A stretch of DNA of 12,549 bases from an uncultured Mucispirillum sp. Lineage in GTDB: Bacteria; Chrysiogenota; Deferribacteres; Deferribacterales; Mucispirillaceae. The notes beneath the pieces were generated by a model, which saw only the letters and a program-made list of their open reading frames with translations, made no database searches and had not been told where the DNA came from. A program made the translations under genes and the position numbers. The stretch spans positions 1 to 12,549 of the forward strand of contig CAMEZN010000012.1 in the NCBI GenBank assembly GCA_945947845.1, read 5' to 3'. Positions 3,042-12,549 of this stretch are shown in pieces; the first letter of the stretch is position 1, and each line of letters starts with the position of its first letter.

Positions 3042-3908
3042 TTATATTTTTAAAGCAAGTCCTATTGTGCCTGCAAATATTAGCATTAATCCAAATATAG
3101 TTTTTCTATTCATTTTTTCATTAAAAATAAAGTATGATAATATAACAGCAACTAATATACTTAATTTATCAATTGCTGCTACTGCTGATGTAGTTCCATC
3201 TTGCAGAGCTTTATAATATAACAGCCAGCTGCTGCCACCTGTTATTCCTGATAAAATTATAAATTTTATTTCTGCTTTATTAATATTTTTTAATTCTTTA
3301 AAGTCTTTTTTTATAAATAAAAGAATCCATGCAGCAACAACTACTACAAAAGTTCTTATGGCACTTCCTAGGTTTGATTCAACATTTTCTATACCTACTT
3401 TTCCAAAAATAGGGGTAAGTGCAGAAAATAAAAGAGAAAGCAGTGCATATATAAGCCATTTATTATTTTCTTTATTTTTATTTTTACTTTTTTTATAATC
3501 AACCATAAAGTATGTTCCTGCTGCTATAAATATTAATCCAAAAATCTTGCAGGCAGTTATTTCTTCCTGTAAAAATATAAAAGAAAAAAGTATTGTTAAT
3601 ACAAGGCTTGATTTACTAATAGGCGATACTTTATTTACATTTCCAGATTGCAATGCTTTATAATAATAATACCAGCCAGCACCTGTTGAAAAGCCTGAAA
3701 GAATTAAAAATATCCATGTTTTAATATCAATGTTTATTATCTGATTTTGTGAGCCTGCAATAAATACTATTATAATAGAAAAAATTAGAACAACTACTGT
3801 CCTTAAAGCAAGTGCTGCATTTGTATTTGTAGTCTGCACTCCTTTTTTTAGAAATATTGTAGTTACACCTGCACATAGTGCTGATAATCCTGCATATAAA
3901 ATCCACAT
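3042..3908 (-). CDS. EamA / drug-metabolite (DMT) superfamily transporter
   Basis: A 288-residue inner-membrane protein made of two similar halves of about five transmembrane helices each (about 1-137 and 151-288), joined by a short lysine/asparagine-rich loop (about 138-150). The internal duplication can be read directly: WYYYYKALQSGNVNKVSPI followed by FSFIFLQEEIT in the first half corresponds to WLLYYKALQDGTTSAVAAI followed by LSYFIFNEKMN in the second. This is typical of EamA (RhaT/YdcZ-like) DMT carriers, whose members export amino acids or other metabolites or take up small molecules; the substrate cannot be read from sequence. The ATG at 3908 is preceded on the minus strand by an AGGGTG ribosome site four bases away. 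The upstream minus-strand methyltransferase ends 132 bp away, so co-transcription is possible but not obvious. It is convergent with mnmE, with stops 2 bp apart. Confidence 0.88.
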   Translation of the reverse strand: MWILYAGLSALCAGVTTIFLKKGVQTTNTNAALALRTVVVLIFSIIIVFIAGSQNQIINIDIKTWIFLILSGFSTGAGWYYYYKALQSGNVNKVSPISKSSLVLTILFSFIFLQEEITACKIFGLIFIAAGTYFMVDYKKSKNKNKENNKWLIYALLSLLFSALTPIFGKVGIENVESNLGSAIRTFVVVVAAWILLFIKKDFKELKNINKAEIKFIILSGITGGSSWLLYYKALQDGTTSAVAAIDKLSILVAVILSYFIFNEKMNRKTIFGLMLIFAGTIGLALKI

Positions 3909-4040
3909 TTTACACCCTAAAATTATACTGTAATATCAATAAGTTATACTGCTTAATTTATATTTTGGTTTCTAAGCCTTTTTTTTATGTATTTATATAT
4001 TATAATATACTAAAATTCGTTACAGGGCATTTTTTAGGGC

Positions 4041-4724
4041 TTATATTTTACCCTTAATGGATATTAAATTTAAATATTTTCCATTATCTGCTTTTAAAAG
4101 TTCTATATCTTCTATTGCATAAGGATTATCGCAGCTTAACCAGCTTTGCCATGCTTGATGAAAACAGTTCATTTCCTGCACTTTAATTTCTTTTAAATCT
4201 TTTTTCAGCAGATTTTCCCAGTAGTGTATACTTTTAAAAAATTTAAATTCATCATCTTTTATATTATGCTTTAATTCATCTGGCACATTTTTATAATCAT
4301 TTTTTATTCCGGGCACGGCAATATATATTTCTCCATTTTCTTTTAAAAGTGGTTTTATGTTATATTTAAAATAATCTTTTTCTAATCCAAAATAGTGGTA
4401 TGAATCTATACTTATTATAATATCAAAGTAATTTTCAGCAAAGGGTAATTTTTCAGCATTACAGTTTAAAGGAATTATTCTGTTATCTAATTTATAATCC
4501 TTAAAAAATTTATAGTTATCTGCTGCATCTACCCATAAGTCAACTGCAAAAATATCTGCATTTTTATATTTTTCTGATATATATATTGATGTTAACCCTT
4601 TTCCACAGCCTAAATCAAGTATTCTTATTTTGTCATTATTTATACTTTCTTTAATTAATTCATCTATAATTATAATTGAATCTGGTCCCATCATTCTTTG
4701 TTTTTTTATATCTTCTTCAATCAT
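4041..4724 (-). CDS. Class I SAM-dependent methyltransferase, substrate unknown
   Basis: A 227-residue cytosolic protein with a Rossmann-type methyltransferase fold. Motif I is ILDLGCGKG (35-43), the acidic residue at the end of strand 2 is in FAVDLW (59-64), AEKLPF (90-95) matches the adenine-side loop, and DIIISIDSYHYFG (101-113) is the post-motif strand and following loop, with a later strand EIYIAVPG (132-139). The MGPDSI near the N terminus plus DLGCGKGLTS and SYHYFG recall a family annotated in many anaerobes simply as SAM-dependent methyltransferase; I know of no defined substrate and assign none. The start at 4724 has an AAGGTG ribosome site five bases upstream on the minus strand. 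It is transcribed divergently from the protease gene at 4884 and points the same way as the EamA gene. The tail contains a tryptophan-rich patch (HQAWQSWLSC, about 189-198). Confidence 0.85.
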   Translation of the reverse strand: MIEEDIKKQRMMGPDSIIIIDELIKESINNDKIRILDLGCGKGLTSIYISEKYKNADIFAVDLWVDAADNYKFFKDYKLDNRIIPLNCNAEKLPFAENYFDIIISIDSYHYFGLEKDYFKYNIKPLLKENGEIYIAVPGIKNDYKNVPDELKHNIKDDEFKFFKSIHYWENLLKKDLKEIKVQEMNCFHQAWQSWLSCDNPYAIEDIELLKADNGKYLNLISIKGKI

Positions 4725-4864: not shown

Positions 4865-4881
4865 AAAATTAATGAGGTGTG

Positions 4882-4904
4882 TAATGTTTCAAGGAACATT
4901 AAAA
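4882..4904. other. Contracted parS-like sequence overlapping the protease start codon
   Basis: TAATGTTTCA (4882-4891) and AACATTAAAA (4895-4904) match ten bases on each side of the true parS at 7086. The five central bases of the true site (CGTGA) are replaced by three (AGG), giving the arms TGTTTC-AA-GGAACA. The start codon ATG (4884-4886) lies inside. The two-base contraction should disrupt canonical ParB binding, so this may be a decayed parS or a coincidence. Confidence 0.4.
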
Positions 4905-7040
4905 TTTATTTTTTTATTTTTATTTGGTTTATTTTTTGTGGTTGGCTGTAATAGCACAAGTTCAAATTCATCATATTCAATAAGTGATAATTCATCAGGC
5001 AATACAGGAGATAATGCTTCATATACTGTTTCTTTTAACAGTAATGGTGGTGCAGGAGAAATGAAAAGTGTAACTGTCTCTGGTGGTAAATATAAGCTTC
5101 CATTAAATACATATTATTATGAAGGGTATAATTTTATAGGCTGGTCTAACTCTGCTAATGGTGAATTATTATATGGCGATGGAGAAGAGATAGAAGTAAG
5201 CAGTAATATAACATTATATGCTTTATGGCAGGAAGAATCTTCTTCTGGTGTAGAAACATATTATACTATAACTTTTGATAGTAATGGTGGTGATGGTGTA
5301 ATGGAGAGCCAGTCTGTTTTACAGGGTAAAAGAGTTCAAATTACCCTTAATAGTTTTTTAAAGAATGGTTATTCATTTACTGGCTGGTCTCTTTCAAATG
5401 ATAATATACCATATTATTCTAATGGTGATTATATAACAGTAGATAGTAATATTACTTTATATGCCTGCTGGAAAGATGATTCTATTTCTACTGCATCTTA
5501 TACTGTTTATTTTAATGGTAATAATGGTGATGGTTATATGCCTCCATTAAAGGTTAATGGTGGAGAAACTTTTGAACTTACTTCTAATATTTTTACTCGT
5601 GCAGGCTTTGCTTTTGAAGGTTGGTCTTTAACAGAAAATGGCGAAGTAGCTTATAAAGATGGTGCTTCGCTTTCTATAAATAGTGATATAGAGTTATTTG
5701 CAGTATGGAAATCTGTTCCTTTTTATAATATTACATTCCATTCAAATAATGGCAAAGATGAAGTAATATCTGTTAGTTTTCCTTCTAATGTAATGCCAGT
5801 AAAACTTCCAGATAATACATTCCAAAATGGCAGTAAAAAATTTACTGGCTGGACAACATCTGATAATTCAGTCAGCTACATAGATGGCTGTGATGTTGTT
5901 TATTTAACTGGTGATTTAGATTTATATGCTTCTTGGAGTGATAATCCAGTTAAAATTACATTTGATGCATTTAATGGTAAAGATGAATATTCAATTATTT
6001 ATGCAATGGCAAGTAGTGTTATTAATCTTCCAAAGGCTGAATTTACACGAAATGGTTATGAATTGTTAGGTTCATATACCTGCTATGTAGATGAAATATA
6101 TGGTGGAGTTCATAGGTTTGGTGTTGATTATACTGTTCCAAGTGATGCTAAGGAAATTGTTTTTTCTGTTGGCTGGAGAGAGCTTCCTAAACCACCAACA
6201 CCAGCTTTTGGCGGTAATAGTGATAAGTATAAAAATCAATATGTGCTTGTCAAAGGTGTTAATATGACAGAAAAAGACTGGATAGAATCACTTACTCCGG
6301 GTTTATTTTACGGTGTATGGAATGTTAATGCTGGCTGGTATGATTCAAGTCAATGGAGATATAATTTATGCTGGGCAGGCACATATTCTAATATGTTACA
6401 CTGGTGGTATGATAGAAATAAAGAAAATATAGAAAAATATTATGCACATTATGCCTCAGATGAAGTAGTAAATAATAAACCTAGTTCAAAATATTATGGT
6501 GAAGGTGTTAGTGATATTTTTATTATATTTAGAGACCATTGGAAAGATGCTGGATATTTGATAGAAATAGGTCTTGAATGGTATATATTTGGAACACATT
6601 ATAATAAAAATGGTGGTGGATATTTTAAAGAAGTATTTTTAGAAGAAGATGTTCCATCTGTTATTGAAGAATATTCTGGTATAACACAGTATACTTTTAA
6701 TACAAATATTAATAAAGCTTTTGATAATGGTATGGCTGTCGGTCTTGCCGAAGTCAATGGTTTTGGTAGCCATGCAATTACATTGTGGGGTGTTCATTAT
6801 GATGATGAAGGGTTGATTGATGGAGTAATTGTTGCAGATTCTGGAACACGCTCAGGTAATAATGCCCCAACTGGTTATGATACTGGATTAATTTATATGA
6901 ATATTATATATGACACTTTTGGCAAACCGTTTATGACAAACAGTTATGGTTCAAGGCTGCCTTTAACTCAGCTTGTTCTTTTGGGCGACGGTGCAGAGCA
7001 GTGGAAAAAGTATTTTGATACACATGAGCCTATAAGATAA
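4884..7040 (+). CDS. Predicted surface lipoprotein: Flg_new-type repeats plus IdeS-like (C66) cysteine protease domain
   Basis: A 718-residue protein from the ATG at 4884. That start is preferred over an in-frame ATG at 4872 because GAGGTG (4874-4879) lies four bases before it; the upstream ATG has no ribosome site. A hydrophobic signal peptide ends in lipobox VVGC, with lipidated Cys22, followed by a Ser/Asn-rich linker. Four clear and one degenerate repeat of about 70-75 residues follow (about 46-116, 126-197, 205-276, 281-352, 356-432), with FNSNGG-like starts, GYxFxGWS centres and LYAxW ends, as in the Listeria-Bacteroides (Flg_new/InlB B-repeat) family. The C-terminal domain (about 452-718) resembles streptococcal IdeS/Mac and Treponema dentipain: VNAGWYD, then NLCWAGTYSNMLHWWYDRN with probable nucleophile Cys496, then SHAITLWG (His630) and VADSGT (Asp652). 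The His-Asp spacing of 22 residues equals that I recall for IdeS. I infer an exported thiol protease, possibly against host immunoglobulin; the substrate is unproven. A terminator follows immediately. Confidence 0.85.
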   Translation: MFQGTLKFIFLFLFGLFFVVGCNSTSSNSSYSISDNSSGNTGDNASYTVSFNSNGGAGEMKSVTVSGGKYKLPLNTYYYEGYNFIGWSNSANGELLYGDGEEIEVSSNITLYALWQEESSSGVETYYTITFDSNGGDGVMESQSVLQGKRVQITLNSFLKNGYSFTGWSLSNDNIPYYSNGDYITVDSNITLYACWKDDSISTASYTVYFNGNNGDGYMPPLKVNGGETFELTSNIFTRAGFAFEGWSLTENGEVAYKDGASLSINSDIELFAVWKSVPFYNITFHSNNGKDEVISVSFPSNVMPVKLPDNTFQNGSKKFTGWTTSDNSVSYIDGCDVVYLTGDLDLYASWSDNPVKITFDAFNGKDEYSIIYAMASSVINLPKAEFTRNGYELLGSYTCYVDEIYGGVHRFGVDYTVPSDAKEIVFSVGWRELPKPPTPAFGGNSDKYKNQYVLVKGVNMTEKDWIESLTPGLFYGVWNVNAGWYDSSQWRYNLCWAGTYSNMLHWWYDRNKENIEKYYAHYASDEVVNNKPSSKYYGEGVSDIFIIFRDHWKDAGYLIEIGLEWYIFGTHYNKNGGGYFKEVFLEEDVPSVIEEYSGITQYTFNTNINKAFDNGMAVGLAEVNGFGSHAITLWGVHYDDEGLIDGVIVADSGTRSGNNAPTGYDTGLIYMNIIYDTFGKPFMTNSYGSRLPLTQLVLLGDGAEQWKKYFDTHEPIR

Positions 7041-7046
7041 ATTTTT

Positions 7047-7078
7047 AACTGCCATACAAATGTGTGGCAGTTTTTTTT
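7047..7078 (+). terminator. Rho-independent terminator of the IdeS-like protease gene
   Basis: A 9-bp stem, CTGCCATAC (7049-7057) with GTGTGGCAG (7062-7070) and including one T-G pair, closes a 4-base AAAT loop and is followed by eight T residues (7071-7078). The flanking AA/TT extends the stem. It begins 9 bases after the stop of the protease gene and separates that unit from the mnmG unit. Confidence 0.9.
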
Positions 7079-7253: not shown

Positions 7254-9134
7254 ATGGATTTTCAAAAGATTTATGATGTGATAGTTGTAGGGGCTGGGCA
7301 TGCAGGTTGTGAAGCATCACTGGCTGCTGCAAGAATGGGAGCAGAAACTTTACTGCTCACAATATCAATAGATAATATTGCTTTAATGCCATGTAATCCA
7401 GCAATTGGTGGCATTGGTAAAGGTAACCTTGTGAAAGATATGGACGCTCTTGGCGGAGAGATGGCAAAAAATATTGATGAAACAGGTATCCAGTTTAGAG
7501 TGCTTAATAAAAGAAAAGGTCCTGCTGTTTGGTGCAGTAGAGCACAGGCAGATAAGCATTTATATAAAGATAGATTCCAGACGGTTATTATGAATACACC
7601 ATCTCTTGATGTTAAGCAGGGTATAGTTACAGAAATTCTGGTAGAAAACGGAGCAGTCCGTGGGGTTGAAACTGCCTGTGGACAAACTTTTCTTGCAAGA
7701 AGAATTGTAATATGCGGTGGAACTTTTATAGGTGGTGAAATATTTATTGGTGATAGAGTTATAGAAGCAGGCAGAATGTATGAACCTGCTGCTACGGGGC
7801 TTTCTTGCTCGTTAAAAAAGATAGGCTTTAATCCTATTCGTTTGAAAACAGATACTCCTGCTAGGCTGCATATAGACAGCCTTAACCTTAATGGTCTTGA
7901 AGAATATGTAAGCGATGAGGTGATGATACCATTTTCAGCAGAAACTGAAAGTATAAGACTTCCACAGATAAAATGTTACGGCACACAGACTAATGAAGAA
8001 ACTCATAAGGTTATAAGAGAAGCTGCTGAAAAAAGTTTGTTTTATAATGGAGCTCGTGAAAGTAATGGTCCTAGATACTGCCCAAGCATGGAAGATAAGG
8101 TTTTAAAATTCCCTGAAAAAACAGGGCATAAACTTGTAATAGAGCCGGAAGGTTTAAATACAAAAGAAGTTCATGTTAACGGATTTTCCTGCTCTATACC
8201 AGTTGAAGCACAGATTAAAGCATATAGAACGGTTAAAGGTATGGAAAATTGTCAGTTTATTCGCCCTGCTTATGCTATACAATATGATGCTTATCAGCCT
8301 ACTGGACTTTATCATTCTTATGAAACTAAACTTGTTAAAGGTTTATTTTTTGGGGGGCAGTTAAATGGAACAAGTGGTTATGAAGAAGCTGCTGTCCAAG
8401 GATTTATGGCTGGGGTGAATGCTGTTTTATCACTTGATAATAAAGAACCGCTTGTTTTAGGAAGAAATGAAAGCTATATAGGTGTGCTTACTGATGATTT
8501 AGTTTTAAAAGGGATAACAGAGCCTTATAGAATGTTTACTTCCCGCAGTGAATACAGGCTTATAACTAGGGAAGATAATGCAGAAGAAAGGCTTATAGAT
8601 TACGGGTATAAATTGGGGCTTATTTCTAAAACAAGGTATGACAGGTTTAAGAAAGAAATGTCAGAAATTGAAAGTGAAATAGAAAGGTTTAAAACTACAC
8701 TTATAAAGAAAAATAGTGAAAATGAAAGCTATCTTTCTCAATTTGGAGTAAGTATAAGTCAGTCCTTTAAGGCAGAAGAGCTTTTAAAAAGACCACAGTT
8801 AAGCTATAATGATATTGTAAAAATGATTGGTGGTGGTTTAAGTGGCAGGCAGGCAAGGCAGGTTGAAATAAAGATTAAGTATTCCGGTTATATTGAAAGT
8901 ATGGAAGAAAGTAATCATGAAGAAATAGAAAGTATAATTATCCCAGATGATTTTTCTTATGATAATATTTCTGGTTTAAGGTTGGAATATTCTGATAAGC
9001 TTAAAGATATTAAACCTAAAACACTAGGGCAGGCTTTAAGAATACCGGGAATGACAAAAACTGCTATATCGGTTTTAGCTGTTGAAATTTATAAACACAA
9101 TAAAATAACAGATAAAACAATTAAATCAAAATAA
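7254..9134 (+). CDS. mnmG: tRNA uridine-5-carboxymethylaminomethyl modification enzyme MnmG (GidA), copy 1
   Basis: A 626-residue protein of full family length. MnmG is the FAD/NADH partner of MnmE in making cmnm5U34 in tRNA. Key features are the FAD-binding GAGHAG (13-18), Cys47 in PCNPAIGGIGKG (46-57), KGPAV then RAQAD (88-100), the second conserved Cys276 in GPRYCPSMEDK, NGTSGYEEAA (371-380), EPYRMFTSRSEYRL (423-436), and the C-terminal MnmE-binding region with RQVEIKIKYSGYI (535-547). Both family cysteines are present. Departures from consensus are MPCNP instead of MSCNP, KTDTP (198-202) in place of the usual KTGTP, and GGTF/FFGGQL variants around FAD-contacting loops. The AAAAGGG ribosome site is five bases upstream of the ATG. 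A related mnmG lies 1.65 kb downstream, collinear and about 60% identical (300 of the first 500 residues, hand count). It may carry the ordinary activity alone or share it with copy 2. Confidence 0.93.
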   Translation: MDFQKIYDVIVVGAGHAGCEASLAAARMGAETLLLTISIDNIALMPCNPAIGGIGKGNLVKDMDALGGEMAKNIDETGIQFRVLNKRKGPAVWCSRAQADKHLYKDRFQTVIMNTPSLDVKQGIVTEILVENGAVRGVETACGQTFLARRIVICGGTFIGGEIFIGDRVIEAGRMYEPAATGLSCSLKKIGFNPIRLKTDTPARLHIDSLNLNGLEEYVSDEVMIPFSAETESIRLPQIKCYGTQTNEETHKVIREAAEKSLFYNGARESNGPRYCPSMEDKVLKFPEKTGHKLVIEPEGLNTKEVHVNGFSCSIPVEAQIKAYRTVKGMENCQFIRPAYAIQYDAYQPTGLYHSYETKLVKGLFFGGQLNGTSGYEEAAVQGFMAGVNAVLSLDNKEPLVLGRNESYIGVLTDDLVLKGITEPYRMFTSRSEYRLITREDNAEERLIDYGYKLGLISKTRYDRFKKEMSEIESEIERFKTTLIKKNSENESYLSQFGVSISQSFKAEELLKRPQLSYNDIVKMIGGGLSGRQARQVEIKIKYSGYIESMEESNHEEIESIIIPDDFSYDNISGLRLEYSDKLKDIKPKTLGQALRIPGMTKTAISVLAVEIYKHNKITDKTIKSK

Positions 9135-10783: not shown

Positions 10784-12549
10784 ATGGATTTTGAAAAAAT
10801 ATATGATGTAATAGTTGTTGGTGGAGGACATGCAGGCTGTGAGGCGGCTCTTGCTGCTGCAAGAATGGGTGCAAAAACACTGCTGATGACATCTACAATA
10901 GACAGTATAGCACAGATGAGCTGTAACCCTGCTATTGGTGGGCTTGCAAAAGGAAACCTAGTTAAAGATATAGATTCATTAGGTGGAGAAATAGCAAAAA
11001 ATATAGATGAAGCTTGTATTCAATTCCAAATGCTTAACAGTAAAAAAGGTGCAGCTGCAAAAAGTTCAAGAGGGCAGGCGGATAAAAAAATATATGTAAG
11101 AAGAATGATAAATACTTTAATGAGCCAAAGCAGTCTGGAAGTAAAGCAGGGAGAAGCTGCCCAAATATATATAAAAAATAATGAAATTTATGGCATAGGA
11201 AATATCTGGGGTGAAAATTTTAGATGTAAAAAAGCAGTTATATGCACCGGAACATTTTTAAATGGAAAGGTATTTATTGGAGAAACAAGTTTTCCAGCTG
11301 GAAGAACTTATGAAAAACCATCAATTGAGCTTTCAAAATCATTAAAAGGAATAGGATTTCAAGCAGTCCGCCTTAAAACAGGAACACCTGCAAGAATAGA
11401 TATTCGCACTATTGATTATTCAAAATTAGAAGTGTATGAAATGGAAGGTGAAAAGATACCATTTTCATTTGAAAATGAAAGTTTTAAACTGCCGCAGATA
11501 AAATGTTATGCTACATATACAAATGAAGAAACCCATAAAATAGTCCAAGAAAATATACATAGAAGTATATATTATAATTCAAAAGATAAGGGGATAGGTC
11601 CTAGGTATTGTCCTAGTATGGAAGATAAAATAGCTAAATTTCCAGAGAGGACAAGGCACCAGATTATATTAGAAAGAGAAGGTTATGACAGCAGAGAAGT
11701 ATATCCGAATGGATTTTCAACATCTTTGCCAGTAGATGCACAGCTTGCAGCATACAGAACAATTAAAGGGCTTGAAAACTGCCAGTTTATCCGCCCTGCT
11801 TATGCAATAGAATATGAGGCATTTCAGCCAACAGTATTATACCCAACATATGAAACAAAGATTATAAAAGGGCTGTATTTTGCAGGACAGATTAATGGCA
11901 CAAGTGGTTATGAAGAAGCTGCATGTCAGGGTATTATGGCAGGCATAAATGCTGTCCTTGCTATTGATAATAAAGAACCATTTATACTAGGAAGAAATGA
12001 AAGTTATATTGGAGTATTAACTGATGATTTAGTAACGAAAGGGGTAGATGAACCATATAGAATGTTTACTTCAAGGGGAGAATACAGGCTGCATTTAAGG
12101 GAAGATAATGCAGAATACAGGCTGATAGAATATGGCTATAAATATGGTTTAATCTCTAAGGAAAGATATGAAAGATTTACAGCAGAAAAAGAAAATGTTT
12201 ATAGAGAAGTGGAAAGACTTAAAAAAGAAACAATAAGGCTTAAAGAAAATAAAGAAAAGCTGGAAAAATATAATATTAATTTAGAAAGGGGCATATCCTG
12301 TTATGAATTTTTAAAAAGGCCTGAAACTAATATTGATATGATATATGATATGGGGTTAACATCGCTTACTGGCAGGCAGGCAAAGCAGGTGGAAACAATA
12401 ATAAAATATTCAGGATACATAAGCCTGCAAGAAGAGGATATAAAAAAATATAAGTCATTAGAAGATAAGAAAATACCTGATAGTTTTGATTACAGTAATA
12501 TCTCTGGTTTAAGGCGGGAATATAAAGAGAAGCTTAGTAAAATAAGACC
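10784..12549 (+). CDS. mnmG: MnmG (GidA) paralog, copy 2, 3' end outside window
   Basis: An open frame from the ATG at 10784 to the window edge, giving 588 complete codons; roughly 35-40 C-terminal residues are missing if it has normal length. An AAGG ribosome site lies five bases upstream. It has the FAD motif GGGHAG (13-18), Cys47 in MSCNPAIGG, KTGTPAR (198-204), Cys276 in GPRYCPSMEDK, AGQINGTSGYEEAA (367-380), EPYRMFTSRGEYRL (423-436) and KQVETIIKYSGYI (534-546). It aligns without gaps to copy 1 for about 500 residues. It keeps the family consensus where copy 1 departs (MSC, KTGTP, GTFLNGK, FAGQING) but is unusual where copy 1 is normal: the KGPAV...RAQAD segment reads KGAAAKSSRGQAD (88-100), and IGGIGKG reads IGGLAKG. 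So each copy has its own altered motifs. It could be the main MnmG, a second enzyme with altered tRNA or substrate choice, or one half of a heterodimer, since MnmG is dimeric. Confidence 0.9.
   Translation, partial: MDFEKIYDVIVVGGGHAGCEAALAAARMGAKTLLMTSTIDSIAQMSCNPAIGGLAKGNLVKDIDSLGGEIAKNIDEACIQFQMLNSKKGAAAKSSRGQADKKIYVRRMINTLMSQSSLEVKQGEAAQIYIKNNEIYGIGNIWGENFRCKKAVICTGTFLNGKVFIGETSFPAGRTYEKPSIELSKSLKGIGFQAVRLKTGTPARIDIRTIDYSKLEVYEMEGEKIPFSFENESFKLPQIKCYATYTNEETHKIVQENIHRSIYYNSKDKGIGPRYCPSMEDKIAKFPERTRHQIILEREGYDSREVYPNGFSTSLPVDAQLAAYRTIKGLENCQFIRPAYAIEYEAFQPTVLYPTYETKIIKGLYFAGQINGTSGYEEAACQGIMAGINAVLAIDNKEPFILGRNESYIGVLTDDLVTKGVDEPYRMFTSRGEYRLHLREDNAEYRLIEYGYKYGLISKERYERFTAEKENVYREVERLKKETIRLKENKEKLEKYNINLERGISCYEFLKRPETNIDMIYDMGLTSLTGRQAKQVETIIKYSGYISLQEEDIKKYKSLEDKKIPDSFDYSNISGLRREYKEKLSKIR

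What the first reader, a model, noticed from the sequence alone, without database searches (positions are those of the whole stretch)
4884..7040. IdeS-like cysteine protease fused to a repeat-bearing lipoprotein anchor
The C-terminal domain carries the IdeS/Mac pattern: GWYD, then LC followed by NMLHWWYDRN, then SHAITLWG and ADSG with the 22-residue His-Asp spacing. IdeS cleaves IgG in its hinge, and dentipain of Treponema denticola is a known non-streptococcal homolog. Here the domain follows Flg_new-type repeats and a lipobox. That predicts a membrane-tethered, possibly surface-displayed protease in an apparent gut-type organism, where IgA, IgM or mucus proteins would be plausible targets.
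Basis: partly seen in the sequence, partly recalled or inferred. Interest (0 to 1): 0.75.

Follow-up and report, generated by a model that had tools for sequence, protein, structure and literature searches.

The report
Lipid-anchored IdeS-like protease with glutamine site
A gut bacterium, probably a Mucispirillum species, carries a predicted lipid-anchored protease related to streptococcal antibody-cutting IdeS and the oral-spirochaete complement-cutting T-Mac; it has a different active-site residue, and its target is unknown.

Summary

The antibody reading is not supported. The closest solved relative, T-Mac, was reported not to cut human IgG or IgA but to cut C3, C3b, C4 and factor H. IdeS's oxyanion Lys84 is replaced by Gln490, at papain spacing (recalled); it is invariant in 14 of 14 sequences, P0001 included. 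Lys84's partners Tyr255 and Asp286 are missing too.

The organism is probably a Mucispirillum (inferred). The family occurs in 2 of 10 genomes of the genus, not in the one matching M. schaedleri. All 26 B-repeat matches in the genus lie at these loci. The syntenic copy is 40% identical although flanking MnmE and MnmG are 88-89%; 7 of 7 readable non-carriers lack the gene there.

Best reading: a cell-anchored protease against host immune proteins. Substrate untested.

The parts
4874..4879 (+). Likely ribosome-binding site GAGGTG, 4 bases before the ATG at 4884
   Evidence: Sequence read; inference
4884..7040 (+). Gene for a 718-aa IdeS/Mac-1-like predicted lipoprotein (P0001)
4884..4949 (+). 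Signal peptide with lipobox VVGC; predicted lipidated Cys22 (4947-4949)
   Evidence: Sequence; a Gly/Ala/Ser-Cys near the N terminus is seen by eye in 14 of 14 of P0001-P0014
5019..6182 (+). Array of about five InlB-type B-repeats (residues 46-433; four found with Pfam Flg_new, the fifth read from the model's strands)
   Evidence: InlB B-repeat 2y5p found by profile
6231..7037 (+). Papain-fold Mac-1/C66 domain (residues 450-718)
6351..6353 (+). Gln490, in the place of IdeS oxyanion lysine Lys84, six residues before the catalytic Cys
   Evidence: Invariant in 14 of 14; alignment to IdeS
6369..6371 (+). Cys496, aligned with IdeS Cys94 / T-Mac Cys412; first residue of model helix 496-511
6771..6773 (+). 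His630, aligned with IdeS His262 / T-Mac His561
6837..6839 (+). Asp652, aligned with IdeS Asp284; Gly654 takes the place of IdeS Asp286
7047..7072 (+). Terminator-like hairpin followed by a T run, after the stop
3042..4724 (-). Neighbours: EamA-family transporter (3042-3908) and methyltransferase (4041-4724), whose relatives stand between mnmE and mnmG also in genomes without the protease
   Evidence: Pfam; relatives recognised by eye

Best explanation
The gene makes a lipid-anchored, cell-tethered cysteine protease of the IdeS/T-Mac (Mac-1, C66) fold family. The lipid holds it in the envelope (predicted), the B-repeat array holds the catalytic domain away from the membrane (inferred), and the C-terminal domain cuts a host extracellular immune protein by a Cys496-His630-Asp652 mechanism, with Gln490 and the Cys496 amide forming the oxyanion hole as in ordinary papain-like enzymes (inferred from alignment). 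The likeliest substrates are opsonins of the complement C3/C4 kind; a mucosal immunoglobulin is second. Shown here: sequence, fold family, aligned catalytic residues, paralogy, patchy distribution, presence at a fixed locus in two species, fast divergence. Not shown: activity, surface exposure, substrate.
Against: No activity, expression or localisation data. Lipoproteins of Gram-negative cells often face the periplasm (general knowledge), and I looked for no surface-export partner. PF09028 is absent from 8 of 10 genomes of the genus, including the one matching M. schaedleri (one of the 8 is only 57% complete), so it is not needed for gut life. Identity to characterised enzymes is only 24-29%, so substrate transfer is weak. 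The model's pTM is 0.47, so how the repeats and the protease sit to each other is unknown.
Confidence: 0.6

Rival explanations
1. It is an IgG (or IgM) hinge protease like streptococcal IdeS, IdeC or IdeSsuis.
For: Same Pfam family and fold; GWYD and NMLHWW motifs shared with IdeS. In IdeS, alanine changes in the loop before the His had little effect on IgG binding or cutting (PMC9759587), so a different loop does not by itself exclude IgG.
Against: The closest solved relative does not cut human IgG or IgA (PMC11833123; IgM is not among the substrates named there). Oxyanion Lys84, Asp286 and Tyr255 are all missing here; T-Mac, too, lacks Tyr255. The loop before His630 is two residues shorter than the IdeS prosegment-binding loop in the alignment; that loop accommodates the Fc hinge in the IdeS complex. 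By phmmer the protein scores 77.9 bits to T-Mac and 49.5 to IdeS/Mac-1.
Confidence: 0.15
2. It is a periplasmic or interbacterial protease that acts on bacterial envelope proteins, not on the host.
For: A lipobox predicts only membrane attachment; no export partner was looked for.
Against: An array of about 390 residues of B-repeats, T-Mac's surface location, and host substrates of the characterised members IdeS and T-Mac.
Confidence: 0.12
3. It is mainly an adhesin; the Mac-1 domain is a catalytically weak or binding module.
For: B-repeats also occur in internalin B; the oxyanion lysine is replaced, and loss of Lys84 in IdeS lowers activity (PMC11833123 citing others).
Against: Cys, His, Asp and Gln490 are invariant in 14 of 14, and the replacement is by the residue that papain uses (recalled).
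Confidence: 0.08

Closest known systems
T-Mac / TDE0362 of Treponema denticola (PDB 9arc, 9mdm, 9mdo, 9mdk)
   Different: T-Mac has two Big domains, here InlB B-repeats; T-Mac has Lys379 and, by its authors, Asn585 in the triad, here Gln490 and Asp652
IdeS/Mac-1 of Streptococcus pyogenes (1y08, 2au1, 8a47) and IdeC of S. canis (9hb1)
   Same: Same Pfam family and fold, triad aligned
   Different: About 24-26% identical; secreted without a membrane anchor (recalled); oxyanion Lys84 with Asp286 and Tyr255, none kept here
IdeS/Mac family protein of Ornithobacterium rhinotracheale (P0018; name given by a source)
   Same: Lipobox-like N terminus by eye, Gln at spacing 6
   Different: 435 aa; no Flg_new match at E 0.1, though by eye one B-repeat-like stretch lies before the domain; Asn at the Asp286 place
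Big_2 + Mac-1 proteins of G047, same family, other genus (L035, L036)
   Same: Same fold family; lipobox-like N termini by eye
   Different: T-Mac-like layout with Big_2 domains and lysine-type active site
InlB B-repeat / Listeria-Bacteroides repeat (PF09479)
   Same: N-terminal array
   Different: In internalin B the repeat belongs to an internalin, not a protease

Membership tests
IdeS/Mac-1 family (Pfam PF09028, MEROPS C66) | Profile match above the curated cut-off | tested here: met
   54.3 bits against 20.3
IdeS/Mac-1 family (Pfam PF09028, MEROPS C66) | Papain-like fold closest to IdeS/T-Mac | tested here: met
   [not shown]
IdeS/Mac-1 family (Pfam PF09028, MEROPS C66) | Cys-His-Asp/Asn triad in order | tested here: met
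   Cys496, His630, Asp652 aligned, and invariant in 14 of 14; geometry not measured
IdeS-type enzymes proper | Oxyanion lysine (Lys84) with Asp286 and Tyr255 (PMC9759587, PMC12418751) | tested here: not met
   Gln490; Gly654; no Tyr in the 8 residues before the His in P0001-P0014
IdeS-type enzymes proper | Cleaves IgG in the lower hinge | not testable with these tools
   Needs protein
T-Mac | Lipoprotein signal | tested here: met
   Lipobox VVGC read in the sequence; no signal-peptide program was available
T-Mac | N-terminal Big domains that bind FPR1/CXCR1 | tested here: not met
   Flg_new and Flg_new_2 found, no Big domain listed at E up to 1; receptor binding not testable
T-Mac | Cleaves C3, C3b, C4, factor H | not testable with these tools
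   Needs protein
Canonical papain-like active site (clan CA) | Gln six residues before the catalytic Cys (papain Gln19-Cys25, recalled), completing the oxyanion hole | tested here: inconclusive
   Residue and spacing met in sequence; geometry not measured, no coordinates were given
InlB B-repeat (PF09479) | Profile match above cut-off | tested here: met
   E 6.6e-43, 145.1 bits against 27
Genus Mucispirillum (host organism) | Genome statistics of the phylum's genomes match published Deferribacterota genomes | tested here: inconclusive
   Three genomes match PMC12887300 Table 2; no named sequence compared

The most novel reading that the evidence does not exclude
Some gut Mucispirillum species carry a diversified set of three to five surface-anchored Mac-1 proteases that M. 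schaedleri lacks, most of them with a papain-type glutamine in place of the IdeS lysine and each fitted to a different host immune protein (complement factors, IgA, IgM), so that a mucus-dwelling bacterium disarms several opsonins at its own surface.
Probability: 0.3. Interest if true: 0.72.

Novelty: new variant of a known kind. Interest (0 to 1): 0.5.

Why it matters
IdeS is a licensed drug (PMC9759587 passage) and T-Mac a recently described complement-cutting enzyme; both come from germs of people. A lineage of gut bacteria with a set of predicted membrane-tethered relatives, with a different oxyanion residue and fast divergence, would widen the known active-site types of the family, offer new enzymes with possibly new complement or antibody specificities, and give a concrete, testable reason why some Mucispirillum species might persist against mucosal immunity while others do without.

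Tried and rejected
Early guess that the organism was Brachyspira: dropped, because the phylum held only 50 genomes and their statistics fit Deferribacterota; the paper search made under that guess gave nothing.

Search for organism names by FISH-probe sequences: the passages seen of the two papers found point to supplementary tables for the probes. The organism therefore rests on genome statistics.

One scan of genome contigs with P0001 returned one relative (L016, Saccharibacteria) out of 10 stretches that matched a pattern; the tool states that genomes near the window's may be left out there.

A single origin of the Gln-type: a first tree of 29 domains separated the lysine rows (6) from the glutamine rows (23) at 93/93, below the tool's own mark of 95 (L016 fell out of that tree because my pattern missed it). 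With the trait's own columns removed or masked and L016 added (30 rows), the split was not recovered: 3 changes; holding the 7 lysine rows together is not rejected (AU p 0.188). So how often the residue switched is open.

Gene of foreign base composition: G+C 0.320 against 0.211-0.355 for nine other segments of the window, so no signal either way.

NCBIfam: none of the 6 proteins given matched an IdeS-type model.

Paper searches: Mucispirillum with IdeS gave 2 papers, of which 1 was listed, an IBD review with one mention of each word, not opened; of 186 papers holding two or more of six terms I saw the 20 listed, none with Mucispirillum. I therefore found no report of these genes, within this library and these searches only.

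Papers, what was seen: PMC11833123 abstract and outline, passages, sections 7, 9 and 11 and part 1 of 2 of the Discussion; PMC5285517 passages and part 1 of 7; PMC12887300, PMC4678223, PMC9759587, PMC12418751, PMC10318531 passages only.

Full report
What is there. The open frame at 4884-7040 gives 718 residues. A GAGGTG lies just before the ATG at 4884 and a hairpin with a T run follows the stop (7047-7072). From the N terminus: a hydrophobic signal with VVGC ending at Cys22; InlB-type B-repeats over residues 46-433 (Pfam Flg_new, E 6.6e-43, four stretches; a fifth unit is seen in the model's strands); and a Mac-1 domain (PF09028, 54.3 bits, cut-off 20.3).

Active site. [quoted passage not shown] in IdeC Lys84 is held by Asp286, which bonds to Tyr255 (PMC9759587, PMC12418751). 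In this protein the alignment puts Gln490 at that place, six residues before Cys496; papain's Gln19 and Cys25 have the same spacing (recalled). Gln490 is invariant in 14 of 14 sequences of alignment A1, two of which (P0001, P0002) are 99% identical. Over 30 domain rows (residue; spacing and neighbours; the pattern missed L032 and L016): 23 have Gln, 23 of 23 at spacing 6; 7 have Lys, at spacing 11 to 20 (P0015 is given as 15 and 14, because two neighbouring lysines fit the patterns). Counted by me, the residue at the place of Asp286 is Asn or Asp in 7 of 7 Lys rows and in 1 of 23 Gln rows (P0018; the rest are Gly 12, Ala 8, Tyr 1, Gln 1). Rows not among these 30: L031 (99% to P0016), L036 (100% to P0019), L035 (100% to P0021), and C9a, whose frame is broken (its Cys piece is Lys-type). 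The rows are related, so these are not independent events, and the trees do not settle how many switches occurred.

What this says of function. The closest solved relative did not cut human IgG, IgA, C5 or C4bp; it cut C3, C3b, C4 and factor H, and loss of the gene lowered survival in serum (PMC11833123); it has a lipoprotein signal and was found on the cell surface. The present protein lacks the IdeS Lys84-Asp286-Tyr255 set (T-Mac keeps a lysine and lacks a Tyr255 equivalent), and its loop before His630 is two residues shorter than that of IdeS in the alignment. I take complement or another opsonin as the likeliest kind of substrate, and IgG-hinge cutting as a minor possibility. No substrate was tested, and identity to either enzyme is under 30%.

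Genome and organism. The window is contig C12 of a 336-contig assembly, 75% complete. The phylum is represented by 50 genomes. Three of them match published Deferribacterota genomes: G002 (one contig of 2,347,083 bases, 31.5% G+C in a 12-kb sample) against M. schaedleri (2.35 Mb, one contig, 31.1%); G014 (about 1.3 Mb, 50 contigs, 90% complete, 47.4% in 10 kb) against Rimicarispirillum (1.34 Mb, 49, 90.7%, 47.4%); G040 (about 1.6 Mb, 260 contigs, 78%, 43.6% in 6 kb) against MS499-41 (1.58 Mb, 254, 78.6%, 44.1%). The window's genus contains G002, so it is probably Mucispirillum. This is inference.

Distribution. PF09028 is matched in 3 of 50 genomes of the phylum: G000, G001 (same genus) and G047 (same family, another genus). 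By loci: three in G000 (C12, two on C9), five in G001 (C45, C148, C149, C150, C19), two in G047 (C34, C10). In the genus, PF09479 repeats occur in the same 2 of 10 genomes, and 26 of 26 matches at E up to 0.001 (two of them under the cut-off) lie at Mac-1 loci, so repeats and protease go together there. G047's two proteins have Big_2 domains instead, the T-Mac layout, with Lys-type sites. Relatives outside include an Ornithobacterium protein (P0018), fimbrillin-like fusions (P0015, P0024; P0024 has a sub-threshold Flg_new match) and a Saccharibacteria protein (L016). Arrival by transfer is likely from the patchy spread, but neither donor nor event is shown.

Locus. In G000 the gene lies between mnmE and mnmG, beyond an EamA transporter and a methyltransferase. 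In G001 a related gene lies in the same interval with EamA, and no frame of 90 residues or more for a methyltransferase (L034). In the 7 genomes whose interval could be read (G002-G008) I recognise by eye an EamA-like frame in 7 of 7 (in G006 only 142 residues), a methyltransferase in 6 of 7, and no Mac-1 gene in 7 of 7; G009's interval is split over contigs. The G000 and G001 proteins at this locus are 40% identical over 631 columns, against 88% for MnmE and 89% for MnmG: fast change, or replacement by another family member.

Verdict. A real, intact, well-placed gene for a new variant of the IdeS/T-Mac kind: B-repeat lipoprotein layout plus a papain-like glutamine site, in a family with several loci per carrier genome.

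Noticed in passing
window 7254-9134 and 10784-12547: Two mnmG genes, 57-59% identical, in the same stretch; two copies are found in 9 of 10 genomes of the genus (G008, 57% complete, shows one partial copy), and in G003 and G006 the second copy is reported with one TAA inside.
   Followed up: partly
L015 196-4713 (G000:C9): Two further Mac-1 loci in opposite orientation, both with interrupted frames; one keeps a lysine-type active site. An intact relative of that one exists (P0023). Real decay or assembly error cannot be told.
   Followed up: partly
L015 4825-8875; L030 1053-2264: A run of membrane-protein frames that look related by eye (about 400 residues where whole) beside the C9 Mac-1 pair, with a look-alike beside the G001:C150 Mac-1 locus; not searched.
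   Followed up: no
L016 5203-6807 (JAUMWY010000002.1): A Candidatus Saccharibacteria assembly encodes a Mac-1 protein at 342.6 bits, closer to IdeS (131.5 bits) than to T-Mac (36.6), with a lysine-type site, beside a transglutaminase-core protein.
   Followed up: partly
L036 6122-8554 (G047:C10): A Big_2-rich protein of 810 aa, lipoprotein-like by eye, next to a Big_2 + Mac-1 gene in another genus of the family.
   Followed up: no
G000 contigs C60, C111, C162: Long frames with Big_2 domains (17 matches) in the window's genome, none at the Mac-1 loci.
   Followed up: no
[not shown]
   Followed up: no
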